Positions 35,952 through 60,310 of a DNA stretch of 64,000 nucleotides are shown piece by piece (positions within the stretch are counted from its first letter, which is position 1; the number at the start of each line of letters is the position of its first letter). The position numbers and the translations under genes are program-made. The notes under the pieces were generated by a model, which saw nothing but the letters and a program-made list of their open reading frames with translations, did not search any database and had not been told where the DNA came from. Origin of the DNA: Maribacter litopenaei (GTDB lineage: Bacteria; Bacteroidota; Bacteroidia; Flavobacteriales; Flavobacteriaceae); assembly GCF_025244665.1 (NCBI RefSeq), contig NZ_CP104205.1:1299001-1363000 (forward strand), in the 5' to 3' direction.

Positions 35952-36740
35952 ATGATACCCAAAATCATTCATTATTGTTGGTTGAGCGGAGAAGAATTTC
36001 CTCAAGACATAAAGAGAAATTTAGCCTCATGGAAGGAAATGTTGCCGGATTATGAGTTCATGCTTTGGGATACTAACCGATTTGATTTGAATCAGTGGCC
36101 TTTTGCAAAAGAAGCTTTTGATAAGAAAAAATATGCATTTGCGTCCGATATTGTAAGGCTCTATGCGGTACATAAATATGGTGGTATTTACTTGGATACG
36201 GACGTGCAGGTTCTTAAGAGATTTGATGATCTTTTGCACTTACCGTATTTTGCCGGTTTGGAACATGCGAATATCATTGAAGCTGCCGTCTTTGGTGCCG
36301 AAAAGAATTCAGATTGGTTAAAACTTTGTCTGCAGCACTATGATGGTCGATCCTTTGTGAAAGAAGATGGAAAATATGATATTACCATTTTACCTGCCAT
36401 CCTTAAAAAACAATTAAAGCAGGAAAAAGAATTGGTTGAAATGACTCCTGAACAGGTAACAAATGTGGAGCAACTTATTAGTGACAAAAGCAAATTCTTT
36501 CTGTTCCCTTGCGATTATTTCAGTCCTAAAGATGTTGAAACAGGGACTATTCATAGTTCTAAGAATACGTATGCCATACATCACTTCAATAGTTCATGGT
36601 TACCTGGATTTTCTAAATTCAGAAGAAAATTAAAGTTATTAATTGGCTCAAAAACGACCGCTAAAATTATCTCGAACCCGTTGGTGGGTGGTATATTGAA
36701 GTTTTTTAAGCGAATTGAATCAAAATTAGATACAAAATGA
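35952..36740 (+). CDS. Glycosyltransferase family 32-type (capsular polysaccharide) protein
   Basis: A 262-residue GT with the GT32/Och1-like start MIPKIIHYCWLSGEEFP, the DxD region KYAFASDIVRLYAVHKYGGIYLDTDVQVL and a C-terminal HHFNSSW. Bacterial members transfer mannose or other hexoses in capsule and surface-glycan synthesis. It is intact and stands alone on the plus strand, convergent with the NRPS cluster. It could decorate the NRPS product or belong to general surface glycan synthesis; nothing in the sequence decides this. Confidence 0.88.
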   Translation: MIPKIIHYCWLSGEEFPQDIKRNLASWKEMLPDYEFMLWDTNRFDLNQWPFAKEAFDKKKYAFASDIVRLYAVHKYGGIYLDTDVQVLKRFDDLLHLPYFAGLEHANIIEAAVFGAEKNSDWLKLCLQHYDGRSFVKEDGKYDITILPAILKKQLKQEKELVEMTPEQVTNVEQLISDKSKFFLFPCDYFSPKDVETGTIHSSKNTYAIHHFNSSWLPGFSKFRRKLKLLIGSKTTAKIISNPLVGGILKFFKRIESKLDTK

Positions 36741-36791: not shown

Positions 36792-37543
36792 TTATAATCT
36801 TGGCAATTGGCTAAAAGGCATATGTTCAGCTGAATTATCGTATACCCCTTCAAATGCCATAGCACCCACATGGTGCTCATCAACCTCAAAACTTAATATA
36901 ACGAATTGACTCTTTTGGCTTAGAATATTAGTGGGTACTAAATGTTCGCCATCCGTTACAGTTATACTTTTTAAATCTACGTTAATTCCTTTACCAATAG
37001 CTTTTAGGATAGCTTCTTTACGTGTCGAGAATTTGTAAAAGGTCAAAGTCTTATTGGAGCTTATCAATAATTCATCTATTTCGTATTTGCTGAAAATAGT
37101 AGGGAGTATATCTGAAAAGTTCGGGTATGGTTTATTTTTTCAATATCAATACCGACCTTTTTATCACCAATAATTATCAATATAAAATCCCCTGAATGTG
37201 AAATATTAAAATATAAACTGGGATGTGAAGGAAGATAGGGTTTATCAAACGAATTTTTTTCAATTTTAACTTCAGTTGCATTCAGACCTATTTCTTTAGC
37301 AAGAAGTATTTTTAGAAAGGACCTTGAAATAATAAATCTATTTCGGTCTGCATCAAAATGATACCTTCCTGCACGAAGCCTTTCCTCATTGTCCAAATTT
37401 TCTATTAGTGAAGTAATAGAATGTACATAATCTGGTATGAAGATTTTGAAAATCCTTATACCGAAATTGCTTTTATTTCCTAAATTCTGAAATTCAGCCT
37501 TAGTCTTGAGTATTTGGATGTTACCACAAAGGAGATTATTCAA
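36792..37543 (-). CDS. 4'-phosphopantetheinyl transferase, Sfp type
   Basis: Transfers phosphopantetheine from CoA to the conserved Ser of carrier domains. Visible motifs are ISRSFLKILLAKEIG, PYLPSHPSLYFNISHSGDF, the Mg-binding VGIDIEKI and the catalytic FSTRKEAILKAIGKG. One break near 37110 (a T lost from a T run) separates two frames; restored, the gene has 251 codons, normal for Sfp-type enzymes. It starts at TTG 37543, overlapping the end of the thioesterase-containing NRPS gene by 8 bases, so it is the last gene of the biosynthetic operon and almost certainly activates the three carrier domains encoded upstream. Confidence 0.92.
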
Positions 37544-40500
37544 AACTATCTACATTATAGGTATCCAAGGCGTATTGCAATTTTTCAGCAAATATCACAA
37601 CATTTGGTTTTTCGAACATATCGATATGGTTCCCTGGAACCAAATGTTTTCGAATACCTTTTTTAGCTATATTTTTCCACCCAAGCAAATCCATATCATG
37701 AACGAAATTAATCTCTTCAGATGATCTAAATAAATCTATCACGATATCCATAGGGACAATTGTATATTTTTCAGTAGCTTTATTATGATTGATTTCTATT
37801 TTTAAGGAGCGATTGAACTGTTGCTCATACTGTTTCTCCCTTCCTAACTTTAACCTTAGGTATAATCCTTTAAACATTGTGCTGATTAAACCTATCCTAC
37901 GTTTAAAGTTTTTATTACTACTAAACATATTGGCGAATATGAATCCAACTTTACCAACAAAATATCCAATTGATACTATTTTTTTTCTTATTGGATTCTT
38001 ATAATAATAAATAGGAAAAACATAAGAATCTAACTCGGCCAGCATTTTCACAATTTTACCTTGTTCTATTAATTTACGGGCCATTTCAAATGCTATAATC
38101 CCTCCAAGTGAAAAACCTGCCAAACAGTATGGCCCATCAGGATTCCGGGCAATAATTTCCTTTACATAGGCATTTGCCATTTCATCTATAGATTTATGAG
38201 GCTCTTGTAGCCCATCCAAACCTTTAGGTTGTAATCCATATACTGGTTGGTCATCACTTAAATTTTTTGCTAGCTCATGGAATATTACAACATTGTGATG
38301 GGCCCCATGAACAATATACAAGGGAGGTTTAGTTCCGGAAGATTTTATTGGTACCAAACAATCCCATGAAAAAGATTCTTTTTCAACATAAGCCGCCAAT
38401 TCCTTGATTGTAGGATTTTGCAGAAGAGCTGCAAGCGGTAGTCTATTACCTGTTTCTTTTTCAAGTTGAGTCATTACCCTTACTGCAATGAGAGAATGCC
38501 CCCCCAGTTCAAAGAAATTCGGCTTATGTCAATTTTTTCAATACCCAAATGTTTTTGCCATATTTCGGAAATCTGTTTTTCCAACTGGCTTTTTGGATGA
38601 TTAAAAGTGGATACATTAAAATTTTTCTTTAGCTGTGAACCAAGAGTTTTACGGTCAATTTTTCCATTAAGAGTAAGCGGAAATTCTTTAACGAAGTGAT
38701 ATTTTTGGGGAACCATATAGGCTGGTAGATGTCCCTTGAGAGCCTTCTTCCAAGAATCTATTTGGTTTGAATTTATAGCCTCTGAAGAAGAAAGTATCAC
38801 GCAAGCCTCCAAAAGATTGTCAGTTACCAAAACCACTGAGCTCTTTACATCCATGAGGGAATCCAATTCCTTTTCTATTTCACCTAATTCGATGCGATGA
38901 CCTCTTATTTTTACTTGTTGATCTATTCTTCCCAAACAAATAAGATTACCATTTGGAGATAATTTTGCTAAGTCACCGGTTTTGTACAGAATTGGGCCTA
39001 ATTCAATTTCAAAAGGGTTTTTTATGAATTTTTCAGAAGTAAGTTCGGACGTTTCCAGTATCCCCTTGCTACTCCATCACCAGCTATACATAGTTCACCA
39101 GTTTTACCGGGTTCCACTAGTCTGTTTTGCTCATCTACTATATAAATGCGGGTATTGGCAATCGGTCTACCAATACTAATAACTTCATCCGATTCCAATA
39201 TACGATTTACTGCAGACCAAATAGTTGTCTCGGTGGGCCCGTACATATTCCATAGTTCATCTACTTTCTCCAATAAATTTTTAGCTAGAACCAAGGGAAG
39301 AGCTTCCCCTCCACACAGAGCTTTTAAAGGTAACCGTTTATTCCAGCCAGTTTCCAATAACATTTGCCATGTAGTTGGAGTTGCCTGCATCATGGTGATA
39401 TTTTCATTATTTAAAACATCCCATAATAATCTACTGTCTTTAGCGGTTTCCTCATCAGCTAAAACTAAAGTCGCACCTTTTAATAAAGGAACAAACATTT
39501 CAAGTCCTGCAATATCAAAAGATATGGTAGTAACAGAAAGTAACCTATCGTTTTCATTAATCCCTGGCTCCTTAAGCATGCTAAAAAGAAAATTAACTAA
39601 GTTTCTATGGGTAATGGAAACACCCTTTGGTTTTCCTGTTGATCCTGAGGTATAAAGTATATAAGCCTCTTTATCATTTGACACTTCTACCATGGGAGCT
39701 ACTCCATTCTTTTGGGAAAGTGATGAAAGAATATCCCCTAGGAATAAAGTCTCTACATTTGTTTTAAAAGTTGGTGATAGTTCTTCTGTAGTAATCAATA
39801 ATTTGGCCTCCGAATCTTCAAGCATAAACTCCAAACGATTCTTTGGATATTGAGGATCTAGGGGAAGATATGCAGCCCCCGTTTCCAAAATCGCTATCAA
39901 TATTGGGATTAATTCAATGGATTTCGGTAAAGAAACCGCGACAAAGTCACCTGGTGTAATACCTTTATCGATCAGGTAGGCCGCTATATTGTTAGATTTT
40001 TGGTATAGTTCTTTGTATGTATTTTCTACATTGCCGAACTGAATTGCAGTTTTTTCGGGTGTTATTTTTGCCTGTTTAGCCAACAAAACATGCAAGGGCT
40101 CTTCGGGATAATCAATTTTGGTGTTGTTCAGTTCCGCATAGGCAGAAACATCAGTTTTGATAATATCACCGATGGGATTTGTTGGATTATCAACAATGCT
40201 CTCCAGGACTTCCGTAAACGAAATCATCATTTTTTCAATACTAGAAGCACTGAAAAGAGAAGTATTGTAGGACCATTCCGAATGAGGGCACCTTCGGATC
40301 CCGTAGCATTTAAAAAAAGTTCAAATGCCTCAAAATCCCTAGGATTACTATTCAATTTATGGGTTAAACCATCAAATTTAACCGCACTGTCCATACCCAT
40401 ATCAATGTTGAAGGCAACAGGTACCAAGGGAACCCTTGATGGGTCCCGGGCAATAGCTAGTTTTTGAAGCAGCTGTCCGAAACTGAACTGTTGATGTTCG

Positions 40501-41511
40501 TAGGCGTCAAAAATCTTATTTTTTCTATCTTTTAGATATTCATTGAAAGGTGTATTCGTATCAATGCTCGTACGCAAAGGCAACAAATTCACACAGTGGC
40601 CAATGAGATGGGTATTGTTGTGAAGTGATTGACCAGCGGCTGGTAATCCTAATACCAAATCATTTTGTCCAGTAAGGCGATTAAGAAAAACCTCGAAACC
40701 TGCCATTAAGGTAACTACTAAACTGGCCCCGGACTTAATCCCAACTTGTTTCAATTTGCCTACCAAATCACTTGGAATAGGGAAATCTAATCGATTGCTT
40801 TTATAGGTTCTTATTTGAGGTCTAGGATAATCCGTTGGCATAGTAACCGTGGGGACATTGCCCTTATATTGCTCTAGCCAAAACCTTTCCGTTTCCTCGA
40901 ATTTTCCACTCCTCAGGAACATTTGTTCCTCTTCAGCATAAGAACTAAAAGATGCAGGTTCGGATATTTGCGCTAAAGTTCCATTTTTAATGGCATTGTA
41001 TTGAGCGCTCAACTCTTCTAGAATAATTCCCATGAATCATCCATCACATACAATATGATGACCCGTTATAACTAATTGATGTTGATTATCGGAGAGTTTT
41101 AATAAACCAATTTTAAGTAATGGATCTTTAATTAAATCAAATACATAATGGGCATCGCCAGTAAGGTAATCCTTAATTCTCTTTTGTCTTTCTTCGGAGT
41201 CAAGATTTGAAAAATCCTTTTCGGTAATCTCTATTTTAATCGATTCGAAAACGGTCATAAAACGACCGTCTCGGATTAAAAGTGGCTCTAAGTGCCTCGT
41301 GCCTTTCGGTCATTTTTTCAATGGCTTGATGTAGGGCATTTATGTCGAGTGACCCTTCGATTAATAATGAAACTGATTCATTATAGGCCCTATTGGCATC
41401 GTCACCGCCAAGCTTGCAAGCAATCCAAATCTCTGCTTGGGCCTGAATCATTGGAATTACTCTTTGTATAGCAGGACCCCTAAAAGGATTGTAATCAACG
41501 GTATTTTTCAT
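37536..41511 (-). CDS. NRPS module C-A(Gly)-T-TE
   Basis: 1,326 codons after repair. Condensation domain (about residues 20-450) with ITGHHIVCDG. Adenylation domain (about 460-960) with YILYTSGSTGKPKG, YGPTETTIW, GELCIAGDGVARGYW and GRIDQQVKIRGHRIELGEIE. Carrier domain NFFELGGHSL with the phosphopantetheine Ser. Thioesterase with GFSLGGIIAF and a late PGNHIDMF. The specificity code read against GrsA is D-I-L-Q-L-G-M-I-W(-K), close to published glycine codes. Breaks: 41269-41274 (TCTCGG), TGA at the Trp of DGWSMG (41034-41038 reads GAATC for GGACC), and deletions at 40273, 39047 and 38523, all of CCAGA type. It is the terminal, product-releasing module. Confidence 0.92.
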
Positions 41512-41573
41512 TCCTAATTGGTTAATGAGAAATTAAAGGGAATTCAATAGTTGGTTTTATAATTATTCAATTA

Positions 41574-44500
41574 TTAAAAATCAATTTTAACAAAGGCTCC
41601 TTCCTTTTTTGCATCAGGAACAAACCAAGCCGGATTCCCGAATCATCAAGACCTAGTTTAGCTCCCTGTACGGGTGGAGTATTAAGAGATTGAATGTCTG
41701 TTTTATCGATGTTCACCGAATTTACATTCTCTTGCATCATGCTCTTATCGTTACCCTCAATACCTCTAAATATTCCAATAGAGATTAATTCATCCACACT
41801 TTCTATAAATGCATCCTTGATTTTTTGAATGTCCTCCTTCAAAAAGGCACTCGTCATAAAACAGGGAAAGCCATCCCAAATATGAATACCTTTTTCTCTC
41901 ATTAAAACAAATAGAAGGTCAGAGTAGGGAATGTCTTCCAAAAACTTAAGTCGCCATAAAGACCCGAAATACATAATCTCCATGGGTAAGTCCCGTTTTG
42001 CAAATTCTTGGTTTACTTCTTTAACATAATTTTCGGTCATGTCATTGAGACCGTCTTGTAATGCTTTTCCCTGTTCTTTCATATGAAGTAGAGAGGCTTT
42101 TGCGGCAGCAAGGGCTAAAGGATGGCGAACAAACGTACCGGCAAAGTACGTTACCCCAATCTCCGGATAGGAGTTGTCCCCATATTGCCAATGACCTCCG
42201 TCAAGGGCATCCATGTATTTTCTTTTCCCTATGATAGCTCCAATAGAAATACCACCCCCTATAACTTTTCCATAGGTTCCAAGATCCGCCTTTATTCCGA
42301 ACAGGGCTTGGGCACCTCCTGGGTGCATTCTGAATCCCGTGATCACTTCGTCAAAAATAAGTACAGATTCAGATTGCTCAGTAATCTTTCTAACTTCCTT
42401 AAGAAATTCAACAGGTCTGAATTCCGGTCTTCTACTTTGCACGGGTTCCACTACTACGGCTGCAAGTTCGTGAGCCCTTTCTTTGATGATTTGAAGGCTT
42501 TCGGGAGTACCGTACTCCAAAACCAATACGTTTTGTACGGAATCAGGTAGTATACCTGCAGCTGCCGGAAACGTTTTCAATTTTTTGGAACCTCTAACTA
42601 AGGCCTCATCATTAATACCATGGTAGGCCCCGCTAAACGATACAATCAATGATCGACCGGTTACCGTTCTAGCGATTCTAATGGCGCCAAGAACTGCTTC
42701 CGACCCAGTATTACAGAGGGCGGCCCTATCCTGACCAGTAAATTCACAGAGAAGTTTGCAAACCTCACCTGCTAGTGGATGTTGTGGACCCACCTCATAA
42801 CCCAATTCAATTTGTTCATGTAGTACCTTTTTAATGAAGTCTGGTTGGTGTCCAAACATACAAGATCCAAAACCATTTAGGGCATCTATGTATTCGTTGC
42901 CGTCTATGTCCCATAATCTATTACCAGATGACTTTTCAACTACTAATGGATATACCATCTCCTTGGTAGCTGGTTTAAATCCAGTAACTACCCTTGGATC
43001 GGACATATAGGATCGATGTTGTTGGGCATATGCCTTACTGGAAGCCGTTTTTTTATTATAGCGTTCGGTCAATTTCTTTAAATAAATTTCCTGCTCCATG
43101 TTCACTCCCGCAGATTGCTTTTCTATCCGGGGGGATGCTCCAAAAGGTTTCTTCAATTCCTTTTTTTCCTCTTCTGTAAGGTCGTCTTCATGACTATTGG
43201 TATTCCCAGGAGCGGACATATTCTCTGTCTTATTGGAACTAGTAGAATTGGCAGCCATTGGTGCCTGCATTTTATGTGAATCCGTCACATTGGAAATTGG
43301 TACTTGCCCGTTATTTTGGATAAGGTCAATCTGCTGGCCTAATAATTGAAGTTGTTGTGCAATTAATCCAAGGGCCGAATTGTTGGTGTTTCCAGTCGAG
43401 TAATTTTGATTAATAACAGGCGGTGCATATGTTGGAACATTTGACTGATGGTTCTGTTGGATTGTATTTGACGCCTGTACTTCCGTTTGTGGGTGAGTAA
43501 TTTCAGGTGCAAATCGGTCTTTAGGCAATTTGGTATCCGAGATACGCTGCAAGAAGTTGTGGTGAATTCAATTCGTCATTTAATTGACGAAAAGTAATAT
43601 CCGTTTCAAATTCTTTTTTGCATGTAGTAGCCATTTGTGTTAGTACCAGTGAGTCCAATCCCAGTTCTAAAAAGTTATACTGGTTATCTTCCTGCTCCAA
43701 CTCTATTCCGGATATATTGGAAATAATTTCAGAAATTTTTTGAAGGATTATGTCTTTTCTCATAATACTAGGGATTTCATTTGTTCCACTTTCATGGAAA
43801 GTATCAATATTTATTGGGATATCCACTCTATCATATGTAGGCGGAGTGTTATTAGTGAAATGTAAGTTTTCTTGTTGTTGCTCTATTTGAGGTGTTTCCA
43901 CCCAGCAAGGTTTACGGTCAAAACTGTAAGATGGTAAACAGATCTTATGTTGGTCATGTTCTTTGTAAAATAGGTTCCAATCAGGTTCGTGTCCATTGAT
44001 CCAAAGCTCTCCAAGAGCAGTAAGTATTGTGTGATACGAATCTTCCTGATCTTTTGGAGCTGTTAAAGAGGAAATGGGAGTGATGCTTTTGCCTGCTTTT
44101 TTCTGTCGTGCCAATGTTGATAGAGCTCTTCCCGGTCCCACTTCCAAAAGTACTGTGTTTTCATCAAGTTCTATTATAGTATCCAGCGCCTGTGAGAATT
44201 TAACGGCATCCCGCAAATGATTGGTCCAATATTTTGGATTTGTTGCCTCTTCCTTGCTCATCCATTTTCCAGTTGCTGTGGATATGATAGGAATTCTAGG
44301 GGCATTCAATTCCATTTTTTGAACTTCTTTTTCAAAAGTATCCAATATGGGATTCATCATGGTCGAATGAAACGCATGACTAGTTGCCAATAGCATATTG
44401 GCTATACCTTCCTCCTTCAATTTTTTACTAAAACGTTCGATGGCCTCATCCTGAATCCGATACAACGCATAAGTTATCGGAATTTATGGCAGCCATGGAC

Positions 44501-47500
44501 AAATCATCTGTCAACAAGGGCATGATTTCTTCTGCCGCTGTTCTTATGGAAAGCATACTTCCTCCAGGGAGGTCACTAACTAATTTACCCCTAAGTGTAA
44601 TTAGTCGTAGGGCATCCTGAAGTGAAAATACTCCGGCCAAATGAGCCGCTACAAATTCACCAATACTATGGCCACAGACAAAAGTTGGTTTTATCGACCA
44701 ACTTTGCCGGAGTTGTGCAAGCGCATACTCTATAATGAACAAAGCAGGTTGGGTGTATTGGGTATCTTTCAATTTTTCTTCTGCCTCAGGAGTAGTTAAA
44801 CCCTGGAATATGATATCCCTGATATCCAAATGAAGCAACTCTTTGATTTCTTCTGCACAATAATCTACAGCTCTTCTAAAAACGCCCTCGTTTTCATATA
44901 AGGCTTTACCCATATTCAAATACTGCGAGCCTTGTCCAGGAAATAAAAATCCTAGTTCATCTGTTACAGATCTTAAAATATTACTTTTTATTCCCTTGGA
45001 ACCTTCGCTTAGAAGAAGTTCTTCTGCCTTTGGACTACCATCGGTCACCAAAAAGCTTCGATGATTAAAAGCTTTACGCGTAGCAGTAAGTGAATATGCT
45101 GTATCCACCAGTGGGATATCTTTGTTCGAAACTAGGTGCTCGCCTAAATCTTTTTGATACGACGCTAAACTATTTTTTGATTTTGCGGACTAGGATAAGA
45201 ATTTCAACGGGCCTACCTTTTGACTTAGGTCTTTCCTTATTCTTATACTCCTCTAAAACAACATGGACATTGGTTCCTCCAACCCCAAAAGAGCTGACAC
45301 CTGCTTTTTTAGATGCTTTTGAATCCCATTTTCGTAACTCGGAATTTACAAAGAACGCATTGTTTACAAAATCAATTAATGGGTTTGGACTTGAAAAGCC
45401 CAATGAGGCAGGAATTTCCTCATGTTTAAATGCCAATAATGTTTTTATGACCCCAGCCACACCCGCCGCAGAGGTTAAGTGGCCCATATTACTCTTGATA
45501 GAACCAATCGCACAAAAGTTTTTTTCAGACTGTTCCCCAAAGGCTATTTCTAGCCCTTCAATTTCTATAGGGTCACCCACCGGCGTTGCCGTTCCGTGGG
45601 CTTCAATATAACTGATTTCATTTGGAGCAACGTCCGCATCAAAATGTGCTCTCATAATGGCATTGGCCTGGCCTTCGGCACTGGGAGCCGTAAAACTTCC
45701 CTTGTCGCCACCATCATTATTTATGCCAACACCTTTTATTACTCCATAAACATAATCCCCATCTTTTTTGGCCTGATCCAAACGCTTTAACAATACGACT
45801 CCTGCACCATCACTAAATACGGTTCCTTTGGCATTGGCATCAAAAGGTCTACAATGACCATCAGGTGTTTTAATTGACCCTTCTTGATATAAATGCCCGC
45901 TGTTCATGGGTGATGTAACACTGGCCGCACCAGCGATGGCTATATCACATTGACCATTTCTAAGTGCTTCGGTAGCTTCGGCAATAGCAAGAAGTGAAGT
46001 GGAACAGGCGGAGTGAATACTTATTGCTGGTCCTTTAAGATTTAAATGATAGGCGATTCTAGTGGCTATATAATCTTTTTCATTTACGGTACTAGCTTGA
46101 AATTCACCAACTTGATCTATTAGCTCTTTGTTGGGCATTACATTATGCGTATAGTAGGTGTTATGACCACAGCCCGCATAAACTCCTACAGTACCTTCAT
46201 GATGATCAGGTAGATAACCTGTTTGTTCCAATACCTCCCAAGAGATTTCCATTAAGATTCGTTGTTGTGGATCCATGGCGGAGGCAACTTTTGGATTTAG
46301 TCCAAAAAATAAGGCATCAAATTCCTTTGCACTGGGCAAAATACCCCTAGAACCTACATAAAGAGGATCATTCTTTATATTTTCCGGAATGGAGCTATCC
46401 AATTCCTCTTTTGTGAAATGGGAAATAGTTTCTTTTCCCTCCCTTAATATTTTCCATAGTTCATCTACCGATTTTGCACCAGGGAATCTTCCAGCCATAC
46501 CGATTATGGCTATATCTCGGGAATCATTTTTCTTTTTGGATTGTTTGGCAAAAGCCATTTTAACATTCTTATTTTTTGGTTCCAAATAATCGGAAATATT
46601 TGCGATAGTCGGAAATTGGTAAAGCTTTGTTACCGGTAATCTCAAGTTATGCTCCTTTAACAATTGTGCCACTAATTTTTGGGCAAGTAATGAGGTGCCT
46701 CCCAATTCAAAGAAATTATCATCGATACCAATTTTGGGAATATTCAATAAACTTTCCCGAGATAGAGGCCAGTTGTTTTTCCAATTTTGAACTTGGCTTT
46801 TTGTAGGGCGGGGCAGAGCTCGGTCTTGAATATTGTGGTTTAGGCAAACTCTTTTTATCAATCTTACCGCTACTGGTTTTAGCAAAATTATCTACAACAA
46901 CATAATGAGAGGGGTGCATATACTCCGGAAGTAGTGTGGACACCTTTTGACGAATTTCATTAACATCCAATGCTTCCTTCTGTGGTTGAAGGTAGGCTAC
47001 TAGTTGAGTTTGTCCCGCCAAATGATCTGATGCAACTACCACTGTTTGCAATACTCCGGAAATTGTATTCAAAGCAATTTCTACCTCTGCAAGTTCTATT
47101 CGGTGACCACTAATTTTAACTTGATCATCTTTTCTACCTTGGAATTCGATATTTCCATCCGGTAAATACTTTGCGATATCACCAGTTCTGTACAACCTTA
47201 TTTTTTTCCCGTTAGGGGAGTTCCAAGAAACGAATTTTTCTTCCGTTAGTTGTTGGTTGTTCAAATAACCTTGCGCTAAACAGTCTCCGGCAATACAAAG
47301 TTCCCCCAAACTGCCGTTTGGTAAAGATTTTAGATTTTCGTCAACAATATAAATATCAGTATTGTCAATGGGACTTCCAATACTTGGTAAAGCGGGCCAA
47401 GATGATGGAGTATCCTGTAGTTTTAACTCTGTAACCACATGGCATTCCGTAGGGCCATACTGATTATAAAGTACACAATGTTCCAATTTGGAGAAAAAGG

Positions 47501-48336
47501 CTCTAACTTGGTCGGTGATTTTTAGCTGCTCACCAGCGGTCATTATCTCTTTTAACGATTTTGGAAATAACCCTGTGCTGACAGCAGTTTCTGCCAATGC
47601 CTGAAGGGCAACAAATGGAAGAAAAAGTCTATTTACATTATGTTTGTTTATCTGCTCTAAAAGCGCCATCATATCTAGACGCATATCTTCTGTGATAAGT
47701 ACCAATGTACCTCCCGTGGTTAAGGTGGCCATAATTTCTTGGAAAGAGACATCAAAACTTAATGGGGCAAATTGTAATGTACGGGTCCCTCTCTACAAAT
47801 TGAGTTTTTCTTTTGCCATTGCAAAAGATTTATCATGGCATTTTCACCCATGCATACTCCTTTTGGTTCACCGGTAGAACCGGAGGTATAAAGCACATAA
47901 GTTGGAAGATTATCTAATTTTTTAACCTCCTTTGGTACATTTTCACGGATTATCACCTGAAATCCCAATAGTTGTAAGGCCTTCATTTCTAGCTAGTTCT
48001 TCATCTGCTTGGGTAGTGAGGCAGAATGACAGACCTGAATTGTTAATAATGCTTGTTAATCTTTTCTTTGGATACTTAAAATCAATAGGAAGATATGCTT
48101 TACCTGATTTTAAAATGGCCATAACAAACAATATCTCCTCAATACATCTGGTAGTAGGTACACCAATAAATGACTCCTCGCGGGCATAATATTGAATATT
48201 ATTGGATATTTGTTCTATTCGAATATAAGCTTCTTGATAGGTAATTGTTTCCTCTCCGAGAAATAATGCATACTTCATTGGGATGAAGTTTAACGATTTT
48301 TTCAAATAGGGTATATATAGTATTTGGGCCGTTCAT
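41574..48336 (-). CDS. Hybrid NRPS-PKS: A-T-KS-AT-ACP-aminotransferase
   Basis: About 2,250 residues. Loading adenylation domain (YVLYTSGSTGEPKG, YGPTECHVV, SSGKIDKKSLP; code reads D-V-Q-F-M-A-Q-V-V, nearest to Pro-type codes) and carrier FFELGGTSL. KS with HSACSTS, EAHGTATPVGDP and KSNMGHLTSAAG. AT with GHSIGEF and HAFHS, the malonyl signature. ACP LELGLDSLVL. Gln/Asn-rich linker. PLP aminotransferase of the GSA class with NTGSEAV, FDEVITGFR and TYGKVIGGG (PLP Lys). Breaks: TCTCGG at 48256, 46757 and 43537; CCGTGAAAA near 47953; and single indels near 47790, 45178, 44457 and 41640. The true start is ATG 48336 (MNGPNTIYTLFEKI), seen only after repair. 62 bases separate it from the C-A-T-TE gene. 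Confidence 0.92.
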
Positions 48337-48549
48337 TTCTTGGGATTTATTTCTTGGTGTACCTAAAAAGAATTATCTACTGAATAATTTTAAACTATAA
48401 CTTTTGTAATAGTTGGGGAATAGTAAAGTTCTGTATTTTAAACCTTTTGAAAAGGATATTACTACTGTTTTTTGAGAAAAGTATGAAATAAATAACCTCA
48501 GATTCTAAAAATTAGATAAGCCGTTTTTTTTACCGTTAAAATTTATGAA
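48337..48549. other. Leader region between methyltransferase and NRPS-PKS genes
   Basis: AT-rich, no open reading frame of note and no clear promoter match on the minus strand. The two genes point the same way, so they could share a transcript. Confidence 0.4.
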
Positions 48550-49419
48550 TCAACATTTTGCACCTATAAATGTTTGCTTGTCAAAACCACCTAACCATGG
48601 TTGCTGTGAAAAATGCCAAATTTTAAAACCTGCATTTTTAAATAGTAAGGGATAGTTGTGGGAAAAAGATGGTTCATTTCCGTATAATTGTGAGTTGGGA
48701 CTAGCTTCAAAATCATGGTCTCCACCATTTGGTTCTATCGCGACAAAAAAAGTGTGCCCTATTTTTGAGATGTTATTCAATAATTCCTGTAATTGAGATT
48801 CAATAAAATACTCCAATACTCCTCTCGATGAAACGAAAATTGTATTACTTTTTCCTTTCTTCTTGACCCATTCATATGCGTCGGCAGCGATAAACTCAAG
48901 TTTTTCATTATTACCAAACTTTTCCTTGTTCATTTGAATCTGTTGCTCACTTAAATCTATTCCAATGAACCTTTTAACTTTTGGAAATTCAGAACTTAAC
49001 CAATTAAGGACATCACCATTTCCTGTACCTATTTCAACAAAGGTATCAAAGGATTGATCTGTGTTATTTAACTCAGTTTTCAGTAAATCAAATACAAAAG
49101 TACAATTGGGTAAAAAGTCCTTTACAAAACCATCCTCTGTTTCCTTAAACAGTTCAGTAGCCGTGTTATTGATCCAAAAATCCCTATTGTTATCCCTAAT
49201 GGTCTCATAGTCATTTATTGGCTTTAGCTTTTTAACCAATGCAGCCCTCATTAAGATTTCCGATATCGTCATGTTCTTCTTATTCTTATGAATCAACGTG
49301 ATTCTGTTGGCCGACATTTCCTTGGCTTTTTTAGGGCGAAGTATTATTAAAAGATTTCCAAGGGTACTGGCTAGAAAATGATATAGAAATGATTTTAGTT
49401 TGCTCTTCACTTTATGCAA
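48550..49419 (-). CDS. Class I SAM-dependent methyltransferase
   Basis: A 289-residue intact protein. The SAM-binding motif I is TFVEIGTGNGDVLNWL, followed by FIGIDLSEQQIQMNK (motif II acidic residue) and LEFIAADAYEW. The N terminus has a hydrophobic stretch (FLYHFLASTLGNLLIIL) that might associate with membrane. It lies directly upstream of the NRPS-PKS gene on the same strand, with no other gene between, so it probably methylates the peptide/polyketide product or its precursor (N- or O-methylation cannot be told). The 230 bases after its start, up to 49652, contain nothing I can support. Confidence 0.85.
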   Translation of the reverse strand: MHKVKSKLKSFLYHFLASTLGNLLIILRPKKAKEMSANRITLIHKNKKNMTISEILMRAALVKKLKPINDYETIRDNNRDFWINNTATELFKETEDGFVKDFLPNCTFVFDLLKTELNNTDQSFDTFVEIGTGNGDVLNWLSSEFPKVKRFIGIDLSEQQIQMNKEKFGNNEKLEFIAADAYEWVKKKGKSNTIFVSSRGVLEYFIESQLQELLNNISKIGHTFFVAIEPNGGDHDFEASPNSQLYGNEPSFSHNYPLLFKNAGFKIWHFSQQPWLGGFDKQTFIGAKC

Positions 49420-49652
49420 TGGTTTGGTTCAGTCTTTTAACGATTACAATTTGTTAAAATTGTTTTGAAATTATTTTAATCACAAAGGAATCAAGTTCTA
49501 ATCTTTTGATTTTACAATAAGTGTTTATTTACTGTAAACAATAGTTATTGAAATTGTACAAGATTCCCATTATCAATGGGAATACGAATCTAAAATGTTT
49601 TAATGTCTGTTAAATTTAAGCTTATAACATCCTATAATAATTCATATTTAGC

Positions 49653-52600
49653 CTACTCGAGCACTATCTTTTTTTGAAATATTTGATTGTGTCCTTGAAT
49701 GGTTAATAGATAGATTCCGAGAGGACAAATTTTCTTCCAATTGTAATGAATGTTTTGCCGATTTGTAAGACCCATTGAGGCGCGTAATATGAACCATTCT
49801 GCCGCTTACATCAAAAATTTTGAGAGTTACTTCCATGCTATGAAGTATAGTGGGAAGAATGATTTCTAAATACCTATCTCTCCCAACAGGATTAGGCGAT
49901 ACTATTAAATTTTCATTGTTCTGCACCTTTTTTTGAGTATCTATTTTTCCGGTTAGCCCAATTAAGGGTGATACGGCGTCGCACCCGAGCAGTTCGATCT
50001 CTGCGATCTGTGTCATTTCCACGTCGAGGTCGTTCTTTGTGATCTCCAGCCTGTAGGTCGTGTAGGTTGCCGGCGCCGACAGCTCGAAGGTCCTTTTCAG
50101 GTACCTCTGGTCGAAGGTCTCGCCGGATCAGCGAGCCTACGAGTTCGAAGGTACCGCCGTTCGAGGCCATGAGCCTGAAGTCCATGGGGTCCCTTCCATA
50201 GTCGTCGTTCGCGCTTGTGATGGTGATTTGCTCCACGCGCCTGGGCTCCTGGAGTACTATCTGTATCCAGCTCGGGCTTGCGGTGGTTGGGACTCCCCCT
50301 GCGTCGAGCCATTTGGAGTGGTCCCCCCTGACACTTCTGTTGTCGAACGCCTTGTACCGGTCCTCGGCGGGTACGAAATCGTTCCTTGAGGTGATGGTAC
50401 CGCTGCCCACGGGCTCGGTAACGTCCGAGAGCTGGCCGTTGCAGTCGCCGCCCGTTCCCGGATCTTGCACCTGTACCGTTGCGCTCGCGGTGAACCCTCC
50501 GTCATCCGTGGTCACGGTCACTGTGGTACTTCCCGGTGCGATTGCGGTAACGTTCCCGTTGCCGTCGACCGTGGCGATGGCGCCGTCCTGCGATGACCAG
50601 GAGACACCTTTATCGGTGGCGTTTGACGGGGAGAGGTTCGCCAGGAGCTGTAGGGTTGCCCCGGGCTCCATCTGCAGGGAGGTAGGGGAGAGCTCCACCC
50701 CGGTTACGGCCACCGGTCCGGTAGGCGTTGCGTCGCACCCGAGCAGTTCGATCTCTGCGATCTGTGTCATTTCCACGTCGAGGTCGTTCTTTGTGATCTC
50801 CAGCCTGTAGGTCGTGTAGGTTGCCGGCGCCGACAGCTCGAAGGTCCTTTTCAGGTACCTCCGGTCGAAGGTCTCGCCGGATAGCATGAGCCTACGAGTT
50901 CGAAGGTACCGCCGTTCGAGGCCATGAGCCTGAAGTCCATGGGGTCCCTTCCATAGTCGTCGTTCGCGCTTGTGATGGTGATCTGCTCCACGCGCCTGGG
51001 CTCCTGGAGTACTATCTGTATCCAGCTCGGGCTTGCGGTGGTTGGGACTCCCCCTGCGTCGAGCCATTTGGAGTGGTCCCCCCTGACACTTCTGTTGTCG
51101 AACGCCTTGTACCGGTCCTCGGCGGGTACGAAATCGTTCCTTGAGGTGATGGTACCGCTGCCCACGGGCTCGGTAACGTCCGAGAGCTGGCCGTTGCAGT
51201 CGCCGCCCGTTCCCGGATCTTGCACCTGTACCGTTGCGCTCGCGGTGAACCCTCCGTCATCCGTGGTCACGGTCACTGTGGTACTTCCCGGTGCGATTGC
51301 GGTAACGTTCCCGTTGCCGTCGACCGTGGCGATGGCGCCGTCCTGCGATGACCAGGAGACACCTTTATCGGTGGCGTTTGACGGGGAGAGGTTCGCCAGG
51401 AGCTGTAGGGTTGCCCCGGGCTCCATCTGCAGGGAGGTAGGGGAGAGCTCCACCCCGGTTACGGCCACCGGTCCGGTAGGCGTTGCGTCGCACCCGAGCA
51501 GTTCGATCTCTGCGATCTGTGTCATTTCCACGTCGAGGTCGTTCTTTGTGATCTCCAGCCTGTAGGTCGTGTAGGTTGCCGGCGCCGACAGCTCGAAGGT
51601 CCTTTTCAGGTACCTCTGGTCGAAGGTCTCGCCGGACTAGCGAGCCTACGAGTTCGAAGGTACCGCCGTTCGAGGCCATGAGCCTGAAGTCCATGGGGTC
51701 CCTTCCATAGTCGTCGTTCGCGCTTGTGATGGTGATCTGCTCCACGCGCCTGGGCTCCTGGAGTACTATCTGTATCCAGCTCGGGCTTGCGGTGGTTGGG
51801 ACTCCCCCTGCGTCGAGCCATTTGGAGTGGTCCCCCCTGACACTTCTGTTGTCGAACGCCTTGTACCGGTCCTCGGCGGGTACGAAATCGTTCCTTGAGG
51901 TGATGGTACCGCTGCCCACGGGCTCGGTAACGTCCGAGAGCTGGCCGTTGCAGTCGCCGCCCGTTCCCGGATCTTGCACCTGTACCGTTGCGCTCGCGGT
52001 GAACCCTCCGTCATCCGTGGTCACGGTCACTGTGGTACTTCCCGGTGCGATTGCGGTAACGTTCCCGTTGCCGTCGACCGTGGCGATGGCGCCGTCCTGC
52101 GATGACCAGGAGACACCTTTATCGGTGGCGTTTGACGGGGAGAGGTTCGCCAGGAGCTGTAGGGTTGCCCCGGGCTCCATCTGCAGGGAGGTAGGGGAGA
52201 GCTCCACCCCGGTTACGGCCACCGGTCCGGTAGGCGTTGCGTCGCACCCGAGCAGTTCGATCTCTGCGATCTGTGTCATTTCCACGTCGAGGTCGTTCTT
52301 TGTGATCTCCAGCCTGTAGGTGGTGTAGGTTCCCGGCGCCGACAGGTCGAAGGTCCTTTTCAGGTACCTCCGGTCAAAGGTCTCTCCGGACCATGAGCCG
52401 ACCAGTTCGAAGGTACCGCCGTTCGAGGCCATGAGCCTGAAGTCCATGGGGTCCCTTCCGTAGTCGTCGTTCGCGCTTGTGATGGTGATCTGCTCCACGC
52501 GCCTGGGCTCCGGGAGTACTATCTGTATCCAGCTCGGGCTTGCGGTGGTAGGTATTCTCCCGGCGTCGAGCCATTTGGAGTGGTCCCCCCGGATACTTTT

Positions 52601-55497
52601 GTTGTCGAACGCCTTGTATCGATTCATCCGCGGGTATGAAGTCGTTCCTAGAGGTGATGGTACCGCTGCCCACTGGCTCGGTAACGTCCGAGAGCTGGCC
52701 GTTGCAGTCGCCATCCGATGAAATGCCCATTGCGGTAAATACCCATTTTACATCATTACCATTTAAGTTTTCCACAACCGCCACATTTCCATCCGCACCA
52801 ACACCAAGATAGTACCCTGAAAGTTTGCTAATAATAAAAAAAGAATCATTCCCAGCGGGAATTAGTTGCCATAACTGAGCATCAGTACCATTGCCAGTAT
52901 ATTGCCAAACATTTGTATCAGGAAGGGTAGCGCCCATCGCTACGTCAATGTATTTGTCACTGTGCAGGGCCCTAAACTTATAATATCCGTTTCCAGCATC
53001 CTCCAGGGCAAAATGTTGATAGTCCAATTCATTATAACTTCCTGTGGCAATGTTAGATTGATTGTTAAGTCCGCCATCGGGAACCTGCAGTGTTTCTCCA
53101 TTGGAAAAACTTATAATTCTATAATCACCATAATTAGGGGGTGATGAGGATACATCCATTTGATTTATCCAATTCTCTATCAAAGTAACAGCATCTTCAT
53201 GTATCTTATTCTTTGCGATTGGAGGCATCATGATGGAAGGGTCATCGGAATTAATTCTATAGTATAAAATGGATTTCGATGCATCTCCAGGAAAAAGTAT
53301 TTTTTCATCAGTAATACCTAAAGGAGTGTTGATACCAGAATTTAATAGTCCGGTTTCCTGTAAACTGTTAAACAAGCGTAGGTCAAATTGTGCTCTATCC
53401 CCTGTTGCTCCAGGTCTGTGACAGTAAGCACAATTAAGATCCGGATAAGACCTAGCCTTTTCATCAAGGTTTGCGTTACCATCATCAAGTGCCTTATACG
53501 TTAGATAATTTTGTGCCTTAGTATCGTCAATTAGTTCGTTCAAAATGCCTAAATGACTTAGAGTCACTAGTTGATTGGAGGTAACCCCCGTTTTGTCATA
53601 TGTGTATTGCGAGTTTAGATAACGCGTTCCGGGGCCTAAGGTTCCCCCCGTTGCCGGATTGTGGCAGGCTACACAATCTTGATTGGAAGGGTACGTCCAT
53701 TTTTGATATGTGGTAGTTCCATTGGTCTTTTTTATTTGGATATTCTCATCCAAGCCAGTCGTCAGAAGTACCGCATCGGTCTCCTGTGCATTCCATTTGT
53801 AAGTGGCAAAATAAAAAGACCCGTCACTTGTCTTGATTGAAAATCTAGTTTCCAATCTCTTGGTCGAGGAAGGGTTGTTTTCATCAATAGGAAGCTCAAA
53901 ATGTTTGATGAGTACCGTCCCTGTCGGGAATTGCCAATCCCCATTTTCTGAAAACTGAATCTGCTCATCTACTTGGTTGTGTGTGCCATCGTTGGGAATT
54001 ACCATCCAACGCTTTTTTTCTGCCCCGTCGGACCAAAAAGGCTCAATAAGGTCATAGGGAACCAATCCGTTATTTGGAACTAAGTTCTCGACATCTGAAA
54101 AGGCCCCGGTTTCCGAAAGTAATTGTGGCATATTACCTTGTAAATCTCCGCCTTGGGTTAATCTGTAGATTTTCACGTTGTTGCCCTGACTCAAAAGATA
54201 GAGTTCCCCCCCTTGGTCTTGGCCGAATGAGATAATATTTGTTGGTGAAAATTGCGTAATTACTTCGTAGGATCCGGTTGAAGGGTCTACAGCCCAAATT
54301 TCTTCACCAACACCGTAATCTGCACATATGTATTTTCCGTAATATTCTGACATTGTAGATCCCCTATAAACATATCCTCCTATTACGGCGTTGGCCTCTG
54401 TTCTTGGGAAGGTCAACAGAGGCCTTTCATGTGGCATATCATCCAAAAGATTTACACAGGTTGTTCCTCTGAAATAGTCACCTTCGTACACGGGCCAACC
54501 AAAATTTTTCCCCGCAGCCAGTCTATTTATTTCTTCATGACGAGTTTCCCCAATTTCTCCAATATATATGGCCCCTGTAAGTTTATCCAAGGTCATTCTA
54601 TGGGGATTTCGATGACCAATGGAATAATATTCCTCAAAACGACTTCCGTCAGGACTTAAAAATGGGTTGTCATTGGGTATACCATATCCGATACCGGAAA
54701 TTTCATCCGGAAAACGGCCATCATTTGTCAACGTCCTTATCGGCGTATGGCTCTTATTTAAGTCTTGATTTACATCTAAACGTAGTACTCCACCATCTAA
54801 ATTGGTTGTCACATCCTGTGGTTTGGCGTAAGCAGATTGGTCTCCTGTGGCCACATATAAAAAGCCATCATTTCCAAAAGTGAGTCCTCCACCTCTATGG
54901 GTAGAACTGAACATACGGCGTTTGATCATCACCAAGTCTTCATTTGGAATCCTAGTCAATGAGTTGGGGTCTATGGAAATTCGTTCCAAGATTAGAAATC
55001 CACCCCAGTAGTCTTCTAAATTACAGCCAAACCCGGAAACAAATGAACCAGGATAATCCCTGCCCTGCCCATCTTTGGTGGTATAATAGATGTAGAAAAA
55101 GTTTTTATTCGGTTGTCCAAACTCAGGATGTATGGCCAATCCAAGAAAACCGCCATCCCATACAACGCCAACCTTGTTGGAAAGGTCGGCTATTATAGTT
55201 TTCTGAGTAACATTATCATTATTTTCAAATCCGTATATTACCCCATTTTGCTGCGCTACAACAAGGTGATTTGAGTTGGGTACCGTGGAAAAGGTCAAAG
55301 GAGAATCAAAGGACAAGTTTGGAAAAGCAACTTGATATTTTTCATCCGAGGCACTTTTATCAGGAAAATTCCCATTTAAGAAAGGACCTACAGGTTACTG
55401 GATTCGTTAATCCTGGTTCATAAAATAGAGGGGAAAAGCTTATATAAAGATAGGAGAGGGCAATTAATGCGAGTATCCCTGGAATAATTTTTTTCAT
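49653..55497 (-). CDS. Giant secreted quinoprotein/cytochrome/lectin protein with tandem discoidin-Big_2 repeats and T9SS domain
   Basis: 1,946 codons after repair. ATG at 55497 gives MKKIIPGILALIALSYLYI, a signal anchor. Then a GSDH-like propeller (WDGGFLGLAIHPEFG, THRGGGLTFGNDGFLYVATGDQ, YYSIGHRNPHRMT), two CxxCH sites (CVACH, CAYCH), one ricin-like lectin domain, four F5/8 C (discoidin)-type domains alternating with three Big_2 domains, and a T9SS sorting domain (VSPNPVGRDRYLEI ... KKIVLE). Breaks: about 55385, 52617, the three repeat copies at 51634, 50879 and 50125 (each at a Trp-Ser TGGTCC), and 49717-49722 (TCTCGG). The repeat block is markedly more GC-rich than the rest. Likely an extracellular sugar-oxidising and glycan-binding protein. 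Confidence 0.85.
49976..52711 (-). repeat. GC-rich tandem repeat, about 754 bp units, encoding discoidin + Big_2 domains
   Basis: Units run on the minus strand: 52711-51957, 51956-51203, 51202-50449, and a last partial unit 50448-49976 holding only the discoidin half. The same landmark (GTTGCAGTCG) recurs at 52701, 51947, 51193 and 50438, a period of 754-755 bases. The antisense frame translates identically over 197 residues in three copies, so they are almost identical in DNA. The first (N-terminal) copy differs at several places. GC content is visibly higher than the flanks and changes abruptly at both ends, inside the coding frame. Confidence 0.95.
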
Positions 55498-57142: not shown

Positions 57143-58276
57143 CTAAAGGGATTTCAATTCCTGATACACTTTTAGTGTGTTGGATGTCATTTTTTCCAGT
57201 GTGAAACAAGCCAATGCTTTTTCCCTACCCTTTAGGGCCATGGATTTTCTTAAGTCATCATTGGTTAGGACTTCGGTCAACTGTTTTCCCAAACTAGCGG
57301 AGTCCTCCATAGGAAATATCATACCGTTCACCCCATGTTCTATCTGATCAGATGCCCCATTTCCATTAGACCGAATGGTGCAACAACCCCCCATCATGGC
57401 TTCAACGGCTACAAGCCCAAAGGTATCCGATCTAGAGGGAAGCACGAATACATCGAACAATTGATAGAAGGGTTTTGGGTCTTGAAAACCTAAAACTTTT
57501 AATTTTCCTGTTAGTTTATGTTCCTCTAATAAGCCTTCTAACCATAGCTCATGTTTTGGGGTTTGATAATCGCCTACTATGACCACAAAGATTTTGTGGA
57601 TTAATTCTTTGGGCATATACTGGCCTATAGCTTTTACCAAAACATCGGTTCCTTTTTGCTGTGTGATACGACCTACTAGACCAATAATGATTTTATCCTC
57701 CGGTATTTGGTGCTCGCGTTTAAGCCTTTTAAGGTTTTCTTGTGTTTCCGGTTCGGAAAATCGTTCAGGGATTCCATGGTACACCATTCGTATACTCTCG
57801 GGGGGCGTATGCATTACGGTCTCTGTAAAGTTTTTGGATCCTTCACTTACTGCAATCAGTAAGGTGGGATGCTTGTAGCGGGCATTGGGTCTAATTGTGT
57901 CCGCATGTACCGTAGAAGTGAATTTTTTTCCAAGTAGCCAAGGTATAAACGTCAAGTTGGGAGAATGGCAGTGTATTATTTCCGGCTTGATTTTAGTAAT
58001 CCGGAAAATAATCTGCACCAAACTTTTTAAGGAATGATAACCTTTGGCAAATATACCTCCTTGGGGCTCTTTAAAATAGTGCATTTTTATCCCCAAATTT
58101 GCGAACCTCTGTCTTAAGGAACTAAAGAAGGTATTGTCTTGGTCTTTTTGTTCTTTAAAACCACCAGTGATGATATGTACTTCATGTCCCTTGTTTACAA
58201 GTCCATCGGCAAGCTCAGCTATATTGGTGGCCAAGCCATCCTTGCCAAATCGCATGATAATGAAGAGTATTTTCAT
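57143..58276 (-). CDS. Glycosyltransferase family 4
   Basis: 377 residues, intact. The start MKILFIIMRFGKDGLATNIAEL is preferred over the longer frame. The acceptor domain has EIIHCHSPNLTFIPWLL; the GT-B C-terminal domain has IIGLVGRITQQKGTDVLVKAI, LGFQDPKPFYQLFDVFVLPS and DTFGLVAVEAMMGG with the EX7E-type acidic pair. It probably adds a sugar to the lipid-linked repeat unit started by the sugar transferase encoded just upstream (10 bases away). Confidence 0.92.
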   Translation of the reverse strand: MKILFIIMRFGKDGLATNIAELADGLVNKGHEVHIITGGFKEQKDQDNTFFSSLRQRFANLGIKMHYFKEPQGGIFAKGYHSLKSLVQIIFRITKIKPEIIHCHSPNLTFIPWLLGKKFTSTVHADTIRPNARYKHPTLLIAVSEGSKNFTETVMHTPPESIRMVYHGIPERFSEPETQENLKRLKREHQIPEDKIIIGLVGRITQQKGTDVLVKAIGQYMPKELIHKIFVVIVGDYQTPKHELWLEGLLEEHKLTGKLKVLGFQDPKPFYQLFDVFVLPSRSDTFGLVAVEAMMGGCCTIRSNGNGASDQIEHGVNGMIFPMEDSASLGKQLTEVLTNDDLRKSMALKGREKALACFTLEKMTSNTLKVYQELKSL

Positions 58277-58286
58277 CGGTGTGATA

Positions 58287-59986: not shown

Positions 59987-60310
59987 GGTGCAAAAAAATA
60001 ATAAATTAACCCGAAAAGATATAAGAATTCGAGCAAATCCCTAATTTCTAGATGAATGGAAATTTTGGTAGGGATGACAAATATTGGTATTATTCGTTAG
60101 CTACTCATCAAAAAAAAGGAAAATTTAGATTCAAAGTAAGTTTAATTTTTTTTAAGGTATTGAAAATAAAACACTTACATTTATTTCTTTAATGAAAATT
60201 TGAATTTTAAGTTTGGTATGCCAGGGTTCTTTTTTTAAGATTGAGAATTATTGGTTGAAAATTCGTTTAGATAATCCGATACATACTTTCAATTATAAAA
60301 GTATCACGAA
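59987..60310. other. Intergenic gap in polysaccharide cluster
   Basis: 324 bases, AT-rich, no supported ORF and no clear terminator hairpin. It separates two minus-strand transcription blocks, so a promoter for the aminotransferase-like gene is likely here, but I cannot point to a consensus match. Confidence 0.4.

What the first reader, a model, noticed from the sequence alone, without database searches (positions are those of the whole stretch)
36792..49419. Compact hybrid NRPS-PKS cluster with in-line aminotransferase
Four minus-strand genes form a complete assembly line: methyltransferase, A-T-KS-AT-ACP-AMT, C-A-T-TE and a phosphopantetheinyl transferase. Seen directly: all carrier serine motifs, KS Cys/His/His, malonyl-type AT (HAFHS), PLP lysine segment, C-domain HHxxxDG and TE GxSxGG. 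There is no KR, DH or ER, so the beta-keto group made by the KS would be converted to a beta-amine by the aminotransferase. Inference: product X-CH(NH2)-CH2-CO-Gly, possibly methylated and released free or cyclised. AMT-containing PKS modules are known (for example mycosubtilin and iturin synthetases), but this minimal two-module order in a Flavobacteriaceae is unfamiliar to me.
Basis: partly seen in the sequence, partly recalled or inferred. Interest (0 to 1): 0.75.

Follow-up and report, generated by a model that had tools for sequence, protein, structure and literature searches.

The report
Two-module beta-amino peptide assembly line
A marine flavobacterium carries a small, real gene cluster that probably joins an amino acid, a two-carbon unit that is then given an amine, and glycine; the layout was already catalogued, but I found no known product, and its first building block appears to have been exchanged many times in related bacteria.

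Summary
On the minus strand, 36,792-49,419 encodes MT, A-T-KS-AT-ACP-AMT, C-A-T-TE and a PPTase. No KR, DH or ER was found, and the catalytic motifs searched for are present. About 15 frame breaks interrupt the window copy, but a same-genus genome (L081) carries the same four genes intact, and codon-position divergence shows purifying selection. So this is probably a working cluster in a poor assembly. The host falls in the GTDB genus of Maribacter stanieri.

The layout is not new: a 2013 survey (PMC3870968) lists it for Pedobacter heparinus, and 35 of 394 other same-class genomes have the AMT in a frame of 1,100 aa or more. I found no characterised product.

New here: the starter A domain is exchangeable while KS-AT-ACP-AMT stays together (pairwise identity KS/AMT r=0.91, KS/A1 r=0.46, 88 lines). 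The window's A1 pocket (DVQFMAQVV) is nearest the GrsB and TycB proline domains; A2 looks glycine-specific. An amino-acid starter, malonate and AMT predict a beta,gamma-diamino acyl-glycine. The 12.6-kb cassette has an empty site in a congener (G030), beside a capsule-type locus. Verdict: a new member of a known kind, moderately interesting.

The parts
48550..49419 (-). class I SAM methyltransferase, probable tailoring enzyme
   Evidence: Pfam Methyltransf_25; 71% to L081 MT; kin near 17 of 86 related lines, across several starter classes
46845..48320 (-). starter adenylation domain A1 (in pieces), pocket DVQFMAQVV
   Evidence: Pfam AMP-binding and AMP-binding_C; code; tblastn with L081; nearest PDB for the L081 orthologue GrsB/TycB proline domains
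46583..46750 (-). carrier domain T1 (LGGTS)
   Evidence: Pfam PP-binding; motif
45191..46519 (-). ketosynthase KS with C-terminal extension
   Evidence: Pfam ketoacyl-synt 2.1e-70, Ketoacyl-synt_C, KAsynt_C_assoc; Cys/His/His motifs, triad kept in 88 of 88 relatives
43992..44949 (-). acyltransferase AT, malonyl-type HAFHS, split by one frame break
   Evidence: Pfam Acyl_transf_1 in two pieces; HAFHS in 86 of 88 relatives
43539..43742 (-). acyl carrier ACP (LGLDS)
   Evidence: Pfam PP-binding; motif
41780..43141 (-). in-line class III aminotransferase AMT
   Evidence: Pfam Aminotran_3 4e-49; best PDB mycosubtilin synthase MycA 6kfu/6kfm, 1.6e-114; PLP lysine in 87 of 88 relatives
40290..41466 (-). 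condensation domain C (HHIVCDG), one frame break and one in-frame stop
   Evidence: Pfam Condensation in two pieces; motif
38660..40080 (-). adenylation domain A2, pocket DILQLGMIW (glycine-like)
   Evidence: Pfam AMP-binding 4.1e-95 and AMP-binding_C; code
38367..38519 (-). carrier domain T2 (LGGHS)
   Evidence: reading, motif; no Pfam hit on the split pieces
37539..38324 (-). thioesterase TE (GFSLGG ... PGNH)
   Evidence: Pfam Thioesterase 1.2e-25; motifs
36792..37543 (-). Sfp-type phosphopantetheinyl transferase, two pieces
   Evidence: Pfam AASDHPPT_N and ACPS
35952..36740 (+). glycosyltransferase-like gene: conserved flank, not part of the cassette
   Evidence: Pfam Gly_transf_sug/Caps_synth; present also at the empty site of G030
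49648..55391 (-). surface protein (GSDH, ricin lectin, Big_2, F5/8 C): other flank of the empty site

Best explanation
A working two-module NRPS-PKS assembly line in a Maribacter-group flavobacterium. The PPTase arms the carriers. A1 activates a proline-like amino acid onto T1. The KS extends it with one malonyl unit to a gamma-amino-beta-keto thioester on ACP. The in-line PLP aminotransferase converts that ketone to an amine (glutamine is the donor in MycA), giving a beta,gamma-diamino acyl thioester. C-A-T adds glycine and TE releases the product as the free acid or a lactam. The methyltransferase modifies the constant part of the product. If the starter is proline: C9H17N3O3, [M+H]+ 216.134; +14.016 if methylated; -18.011 if cyclised (worked out by hand). 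Shown by sequence: the domains, their order, intact catalytic residues, selection, conservation. Inferred: substrates, amination in vivo, release form, methyl acceptor.
For: Domains and motifs. Intact orthologue in the same order. AMT closest to MycA AMT, 1.6e-114 against 1.1e-47 for the next molecule. PLP lysine kept in 87 of 88 relatives, KS Cys/His/His in 88 of 88. A1 pocket region of orthologue L081 nearest GrsB 8p5o (3.6e-43) and TycB 9bfd_B (6e-42), next LgrA 4.9e-33. Window codes DVQFMAQVV and DILQLGMIW. 54 of 86 non-redundant lines have a separate downstream C-A-T-TE. Divergence from L081 at codon positions 1/2/3 is 0.31/0.19/0.57 over 4,155 codons. Glutamine as amine donor and action on the ACP-bound beta-ketothioester: passages of PMC3870968 citing Aron 2005.
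Against: No product, expression or biochemistry. A1 differs from GrsB/TycB at three of nine pocket positions (278, 299, 322), so the starter may not be proline. The window copy is broken at about 15 places, and homopolymer runs explain this poorly (20 runs near 15 junctions against about 14.5 expected). The canonical glycine-type code is in only 29 of 78 non-starter A domains of the parsed loci, which include some domains of other proteins; even close relatives differ (L081 reads DIFEFTLIW).
Confidence: 0.66

Rival explanations
1. The starter is not an alpha-amino acid but another small acid, so the product is an ordinary beta-amino acyl-glycine.
For: Three pocket differences from the proline domains; no A1 substrate has been tested.
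Against: Position 235 is Asp in all 88 A1 domains that gave a code, of 89, the residue that holds the amine (recalled); relatives carry codes known from memory for Thr, Val, Ser and Asp.
Confidence: 0.15
2. The cluster is a decaying pseudogene in this strain.
For: About 15 frame breaks in 12.6 kb, not clearly tied to homopolymers; the empty site in G030 shows the cassette can be absent.
Against: Genes elsewhere in the genome are broken too: one ketoacyl-synthase match (G000:C1:3,516,697-3,517,432) is split over two frames and another holds a TGA. Completeness is 81.7% on one contig, against 97% or more for 28 of 35 congeners. Third-position excess shows purifying selection.
Confidence: 0.08
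3. The product decorates, or is exported with, a surface polysaccharide.
For: A Wza-type export gene (PF02563) lies within 42 kb of the AMT in 16 of 17 genomes of the genus searched, within 1.5 kb in 11. Wza, Wzc, Wzy, Wzx and GT kin follow the PPTase in nine Maribacter-type lines (Pfam on L030; homology for the rest). An OEP and a Wzc-like gene lie beside 9 of 86 lines, with a GT2 in 7 of these.
Against: Same-genus loci are not independent, and capsule loci are hot spots of gene turnover (recalled). Of 28 other-genus genomes, PF02563 lay within 42 kb only in G289, and the Wzc-like family GNVR lay within 20 kb in two (G348, G199; a third place at 21 kb) where a rough estimate expects about one. 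The window cassette is bounded by a GT and a surface-protein gene and has an empty site there.
Confidence: 0.15
4. The product is a metal chelator.
For: A vicinal diamine with amide and carboxylate would chelate copper (inference). Four of nine Thr-code lines (eight of the 86 plus Spirosoma plasmid pSLIN02, L158) lie beside DUF305 genes, three of these also beside a multicopper oxidase.
Against: None of the other 78 non-redundant lines has kin of these genes in its stretch.
Confidence: 0.08

Closest known systems
Mycosubtilin synthase MycA (also iturin, bacillomycin)
   Same: KS-AT-ACP followed in line by an Aminotran_3 AMT at the PKS/NRPS boundary; the AMT is the nearest solved relative
   Different: MycA starts with an acyl ligase and a fatty acid (recalled); here an amino-acid A-T loads the KS, the next C domain is on a second protein, and the line ends after one residue
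Pedobacter heparinus C6XWU5 and kin (Milano et al. 2013, PMC3870968 Table 2)
   Same: A-CP-KS-AT-CP-PLP1 in a Bacteroidetes NRPS-PKS cluster with predicted product Nrp-Mal-Gly-Pk
   Different: Only listed there, with no product structure given in the sections I read; I did not align C6XWU5 itself
Microcystin/nodularin McyE/NdaF, puwainaphycin
   Same: in-line AMT after a PKS module, then C-A-T (recalled; puwainaphycin seen as a search listing)
   Different: long assembly lines with aryl or fatty starters (recalled)
Statine- and detoxinine-type units
   Same: amino acid plus one malonate from a hybrid line (recalled)
   Different: ketoreductase gives a beta-hydroxy (recalled); here AMT would give a beta-amine
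Guadinomines
   Same: natural product in which a vicinal diamine matters for activity (passage of PMC6963908)
   Different: biosynthesis not compared by sequence

Membership tests
AMT-containing hybrid PKS-NRPS (MycA type) | Aminotran_3 domain in line after an ACP of a KS-AT-ACP module | tested here: met
   intact in L081
AMT-containing hybrid PKS-NRPS (MycA type) | AMT sequence kin of MycA with PLP lysine | tested here: met
   E 1.6e-114
AMT-containing hybrid PKS-NRPS (MycA type) | no KR in the module, so the beta-ketone remains for AMT | tested here: met
   no KR/DH; AT-ACP gap at most 120 aa in 93 proteins
AMT-containing hybrid PKS-NRPS (MycA type) | amination of the beta-ketothioester, Gln donor | not testable with these tools
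   needs enzyme assay
Iturin/mycosubtilin subgroup | fatty acyl ligase starter | tested here: not met
   starter is an amino-acid-type A domain (TIGR01733 over its cut-off in L081; code)
A-CP-KS-AT-CP-PLP1 layout of Pedobacter heparinus C6XWU5 | same domain order, Gly module follows | tested here: met
   layout; sequence of C6XWU5 not compared
Proline-activating A domain (GrsB1/TycB1) | nearest kin among solved structures by pocket region | tested here: met
   with the L081 orthologue as query
Proline-activating A domain (GrsB1/TycB1) | pocket code DVQSIAHVV | tested here: inconclusive
   6 of 9 positions equal
Glycine-activating A domain (A2) | code DILQ(L/I)G(M/L/V)(I/V)W | tested here: met
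   substrate meaning recalled
Gained or lost cassette | empty site in a relative | tested here: met
   G030 keeps both flanks without the genes; gain and loss not told apart
Gained or lost cassette | recombinase or terminal repeats | not tested
   not sought

The most novel reading that the evidence does not exclude
A largely unstudied Bacteroidota-wide family of compact beta,gamma-diamino acid ('aminostatine') synthetases in which a fixed KS-AT-ACP-AMT core is fitted with ever-changing starter A domains (proline-, threonine-, glycine-, valine-, serine- and aspartate-type codes), each making a different small vicinal-diamine peptide; some branches are tied to capsule export and one to copper handling.
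Probability: 0.4. Interest if true: 0.68.

Novelty: new member of a known kind. Interest (0 to 1): 0.48.

Why it matters
If the reading is right, roughly one in eleven sampled genomes of this bacterial class (35 of 394 besides the window's own) encodes a very short, easily expressed line for vicinal-diamine amino acids, units that resemble protease-inhibitor statines. The starter exchanges show which junction tolerates domain replacement, which is of use to people who engineer such lines. Only two proteins plus a PPTase are needed to test it.

Tried and rejected
Thallusin (an algal morphogen of Maribacter) as the product: considered because of the genus. The listing (titles and abstract openings; no paper opened) showed no gene cluster, and the domain logic does not fit what I recall of its structure; dropped.

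General tie to polysaccharide export: strong in the genus, weak in 28 other-genus genomes; kept only as a rival.

Glycosyltransferase 35,952-36,740 as part of the cluster: it sits beside the line in 6 of 7 genus genomes that have it (36 searched), but the seventh, G030, has it with the same flanks and no line, so it is a flank.

Homopolymer errors as the cause of the frame breaks: 20 runs near 15 junctions against about 14.5 expected; not convincing. An earlier count said 17; 20 is the recount from the call output.

KS motifs in relatives: my first, too narrow patterns fitted all three sites in only 56 of 88; read by alignment column, Cys/His/His is kept in 88 of 88.

Methyl acceptor from structure: the AlphaFold model of MT (pLDDT 81.5) hits many class I methyltransferases (896 at E 0.001 or better; 50 rows shown). 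Among the shown rows the best query-normalised TM-scores are alpha-N-terminal methyltransferases (NRMT1, 0.59) at 13% identity; too weak to assign.

CPBP/Rce1-like and JmjC/cupin genes that accompany relatives: no Rce1-like kin in the window or own genome (one search had no positive control); the label itself is weak (L034 copy just under Pfam's cut-off; no Pfam match for the L081 copy). Cupin kin elsewhere in the genome are distant, 25-37%.

Rows dropped: tblastn pieces under 36% identity were left out, and two short carrier-domain cross-matches (39% and 43%) stayed in. In one search, one of 89 A1 domains (L152) was left out because it did not fit the single-KS line. In some searches, 86 of 88 lines were kept after removing near-copies. 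In one search, G020 (68% complete) of the 18 genomes of the genus that carry the line (own included) was not searched. Of the 35 other-genus genomes with a long frame, 28 were fetched and parsed, seven were not.

Literature searched. Papers opened: PMC3870968 (abstract, outline, passages, sections 7 and 8) and PMC6963908 (two passages); all others seen as listings only. That I found no product in print rests on these open-access searches alone.
Full report
What was checked. The finding names four minus-strand genes at 36,792-49,419. The open pieces were scanned one by one with Pfam, read in six frames and tested for catalytic motifs. The named domains are there in the stated order. T2 is split by a frame break and rests on its motif and on L081 rather than on a Pfam hit.

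Real or decayed. The window is part of a single-contig 3.86-Mb genome with completeness 81.7%, whereas 28 of 35 congeners reach 97% or more. Of the ketoacyl-synthase matches elsewhere in the genome, one is split over two frames and one holds a TGA. A same-genus genome carries MT (286 aa), A-T-KS-AT-ACP-AMT (2231 aa), C-A-T-TE (1325 aa) and PPTase (246 aa), intact and in the same order (L081). Against it the window differs at codon positions 1, 2 and 3 by 0.31, 0.19 and 0.57 over 4,155 codons, the signature of a protein kept by selection. Homopolymer runs do not clearly explain the breaks. I take the copy to be functional with sequence errors, but only better reads can settle it.

Anatomy and mechanism. 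The AMT is closest to the aminotransferase of mycosubtilin synthase (6kfu, 1.6e-114; the next molecule 1.1e-47) and keeps the PLP lysine, as do 87 of 88 relatives (the other has a gap there). The KS triad is kept in 88 of 88. No reductive domain was found in L081, and the AT-ACP gap is 57-120 aa in 93 proteins, too short for a KR. HAFHS, the malonyl signature (recalled), is in 86 of 88 ATs. The pocket residues are DVQFMAQVV for A1 and DILQLGMIW for A2. For A1, the pocket region of orthologue L081 is nearest the first domains of GrsB and TycB, which activate proline (recalled), ahead of LgrA by about ten orders of magnitude; six of nine pocket positions are equal. DILQLGMIW is a glycine-type code (recalled). 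Therefore the starter most likely carries its own alpha-amine, and amination of the beta-ketone gives a beta,gamma-diamino acyl unit joined to glycine.

Spread and diversity. A pattern scan of genome contigs (84,980 species) for the window AMT returned 52 loci, mainly Flavobacteriaceae, Spirosoma, Hymenobacter and other Bacteroidota, with a few from Verrucomicrobia, Bacteriovoracaceae, Hydrogenophaga and a delta proteobacterium. In an even draw of 395 genomes of the class, own genome included, 38 matched at 1e-100; besides the own genome, 35 of 394 have the match in a frame of 1,100 aa or more and two (G091, G409) only in a frame of about 445 aa. None of the 13 same-family genomes from other genera in that draw matched. 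I fetched and parsed 28 of the 35. In the genus, 17 of 35 other genomes match at 1e-240 or better. Among plasmids, 50 records match at 1e-60, mostly rhizobia and agrobacteria at under 60% identity. Of 86 non-redundant lines, 54 have a separate downstream C-A-T-TE, 2 a downstream C-A-T, 5 a fused C, 2 an upstream C-A-T-TE only, and 23 none in the stretch held, some of which are cut by the stretch end.

Starter exchange. Over pairs of 88 lines, identity of KS follows that of AT (r 0.90) and AMT (r 0.91) but much less that of A1 (r 0.46). L081 and L082, from one genus, share 74% in KS and 78% in AMT but 33% in A1. In a quick KS+AMT tree of 87 rows, the window groups with L036 and L082 (SH-aLRT 100), though its A1 piece is nearest L037 and L081 (75 and 73%). 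Sixteen starter labels of my own making need 18 changes where 15 is the least possible; the DVQ class alone needs 12, of which starred branches force 8; a few long rows (L073, L075, L079, L143, L153) are placed unsurely. Thirty-nine of 89 A1 domains, near-copies included, are of the DVQ kind; others carry codes read, from memory, as Thr, Val, Ser, Asp and Gly. A-domain exchange is known in such enzymes (recalled); its extent around a fixed aminating core is what I had not seen.

Surroundings. The cassette has a clean empty site: G030 keeps, in the same order, the surface protein, FemAB-like, sugar-transferase and glycosyltransferase genes on one side and the GT and PKD-lectin gene on the other, with no trace of MT, PKS, NRPS or PPTase in the 19.9 kb fetched and no AMT match at 1e-50 in its genome. 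In the genus, a Wza-type gene lies within 42 kb of the AMT in 16 of 17 genomes searched; the exception, G019, has it on another contig. The link is not general. The MT accompanies lines with several starter classes (17 of 86), which suggests that it acts on the constant part of the product.

Comparison with the known. By mechanism this is a MycA-type aminating PKS-NRPS; by layout it matches an entry in a 2013 survey, Pedobacter heparinus C6XWU5, predicted product Nrp-Mal-Gly-Pk. It fails the fatty-acyl starter feature of the iturin subgroup. I found no characterised product in ten open-access searches, but subscription papers and MIBiG were out of reach. Verdict: a real cluster, a new member of a known kind, of moderate interest, chiefly for the starter exchange and the predicted vicinal diamine.

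Noticed in passing
L052, L065, L078, L158 (Spirosoma plasmid pSLIN02): Thr-code A-T-KS-AT-ACP-AMT lines with an upstream GNAT and no C-A-T-TE found lie beside DUF305 genes; in three of the four also a multicopper oxidase, in two also P-type ATPases. A possible copper-binding product.
   Followed up: partly
L030, L032, L043, L084, L144, L146-L149: Kin of Wza, Wzc, Wzy, Wzx and a glycosyltransferase follow the PPTase of the assembly line in these Maribacter-type genomes.
   Followed up: partly
L034, L036, L037, L038, L039, L040: One or two JmjC/cupin_8 hydroxylase-like genes flank or split the two assembly genes (Pfam on L034 only; the rest by homology); L034, L037, L038 and L039 also carry a weakly CPBP/Rce1-like membrane protein.
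   Followed up: partly
window 50000-52700: Stretch of about 62% GC in a 38% GC window: repeated segments coding Big_2 and F5/8 type C domains of a surface protein.
   Followed up: no
window 57143-63734: Glycosyltransferases and a Bac_transf initiating sugar transferase: the near end of a capsule-type locus; the only Poly_export match found in this genome lies about 42 kb from the AMT.
   Followed up: partly
L133, L135-L141, L150 (family f24, one genus): A high-GC Bacteroidia genus (locus GC 0.58-0.68) carries a uniform sub-branch with A1 code DVQIFSQVV, six of nine with the A2 code DALWLGGTF; names are hidden.
   Followed up: no
L159 (Rhizobium sp. SL42 plasmid): A related AMT line in Rhizobium also lies beside polysaccharide genes (pyruvyl transferase, GH16).
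   Followed up: no
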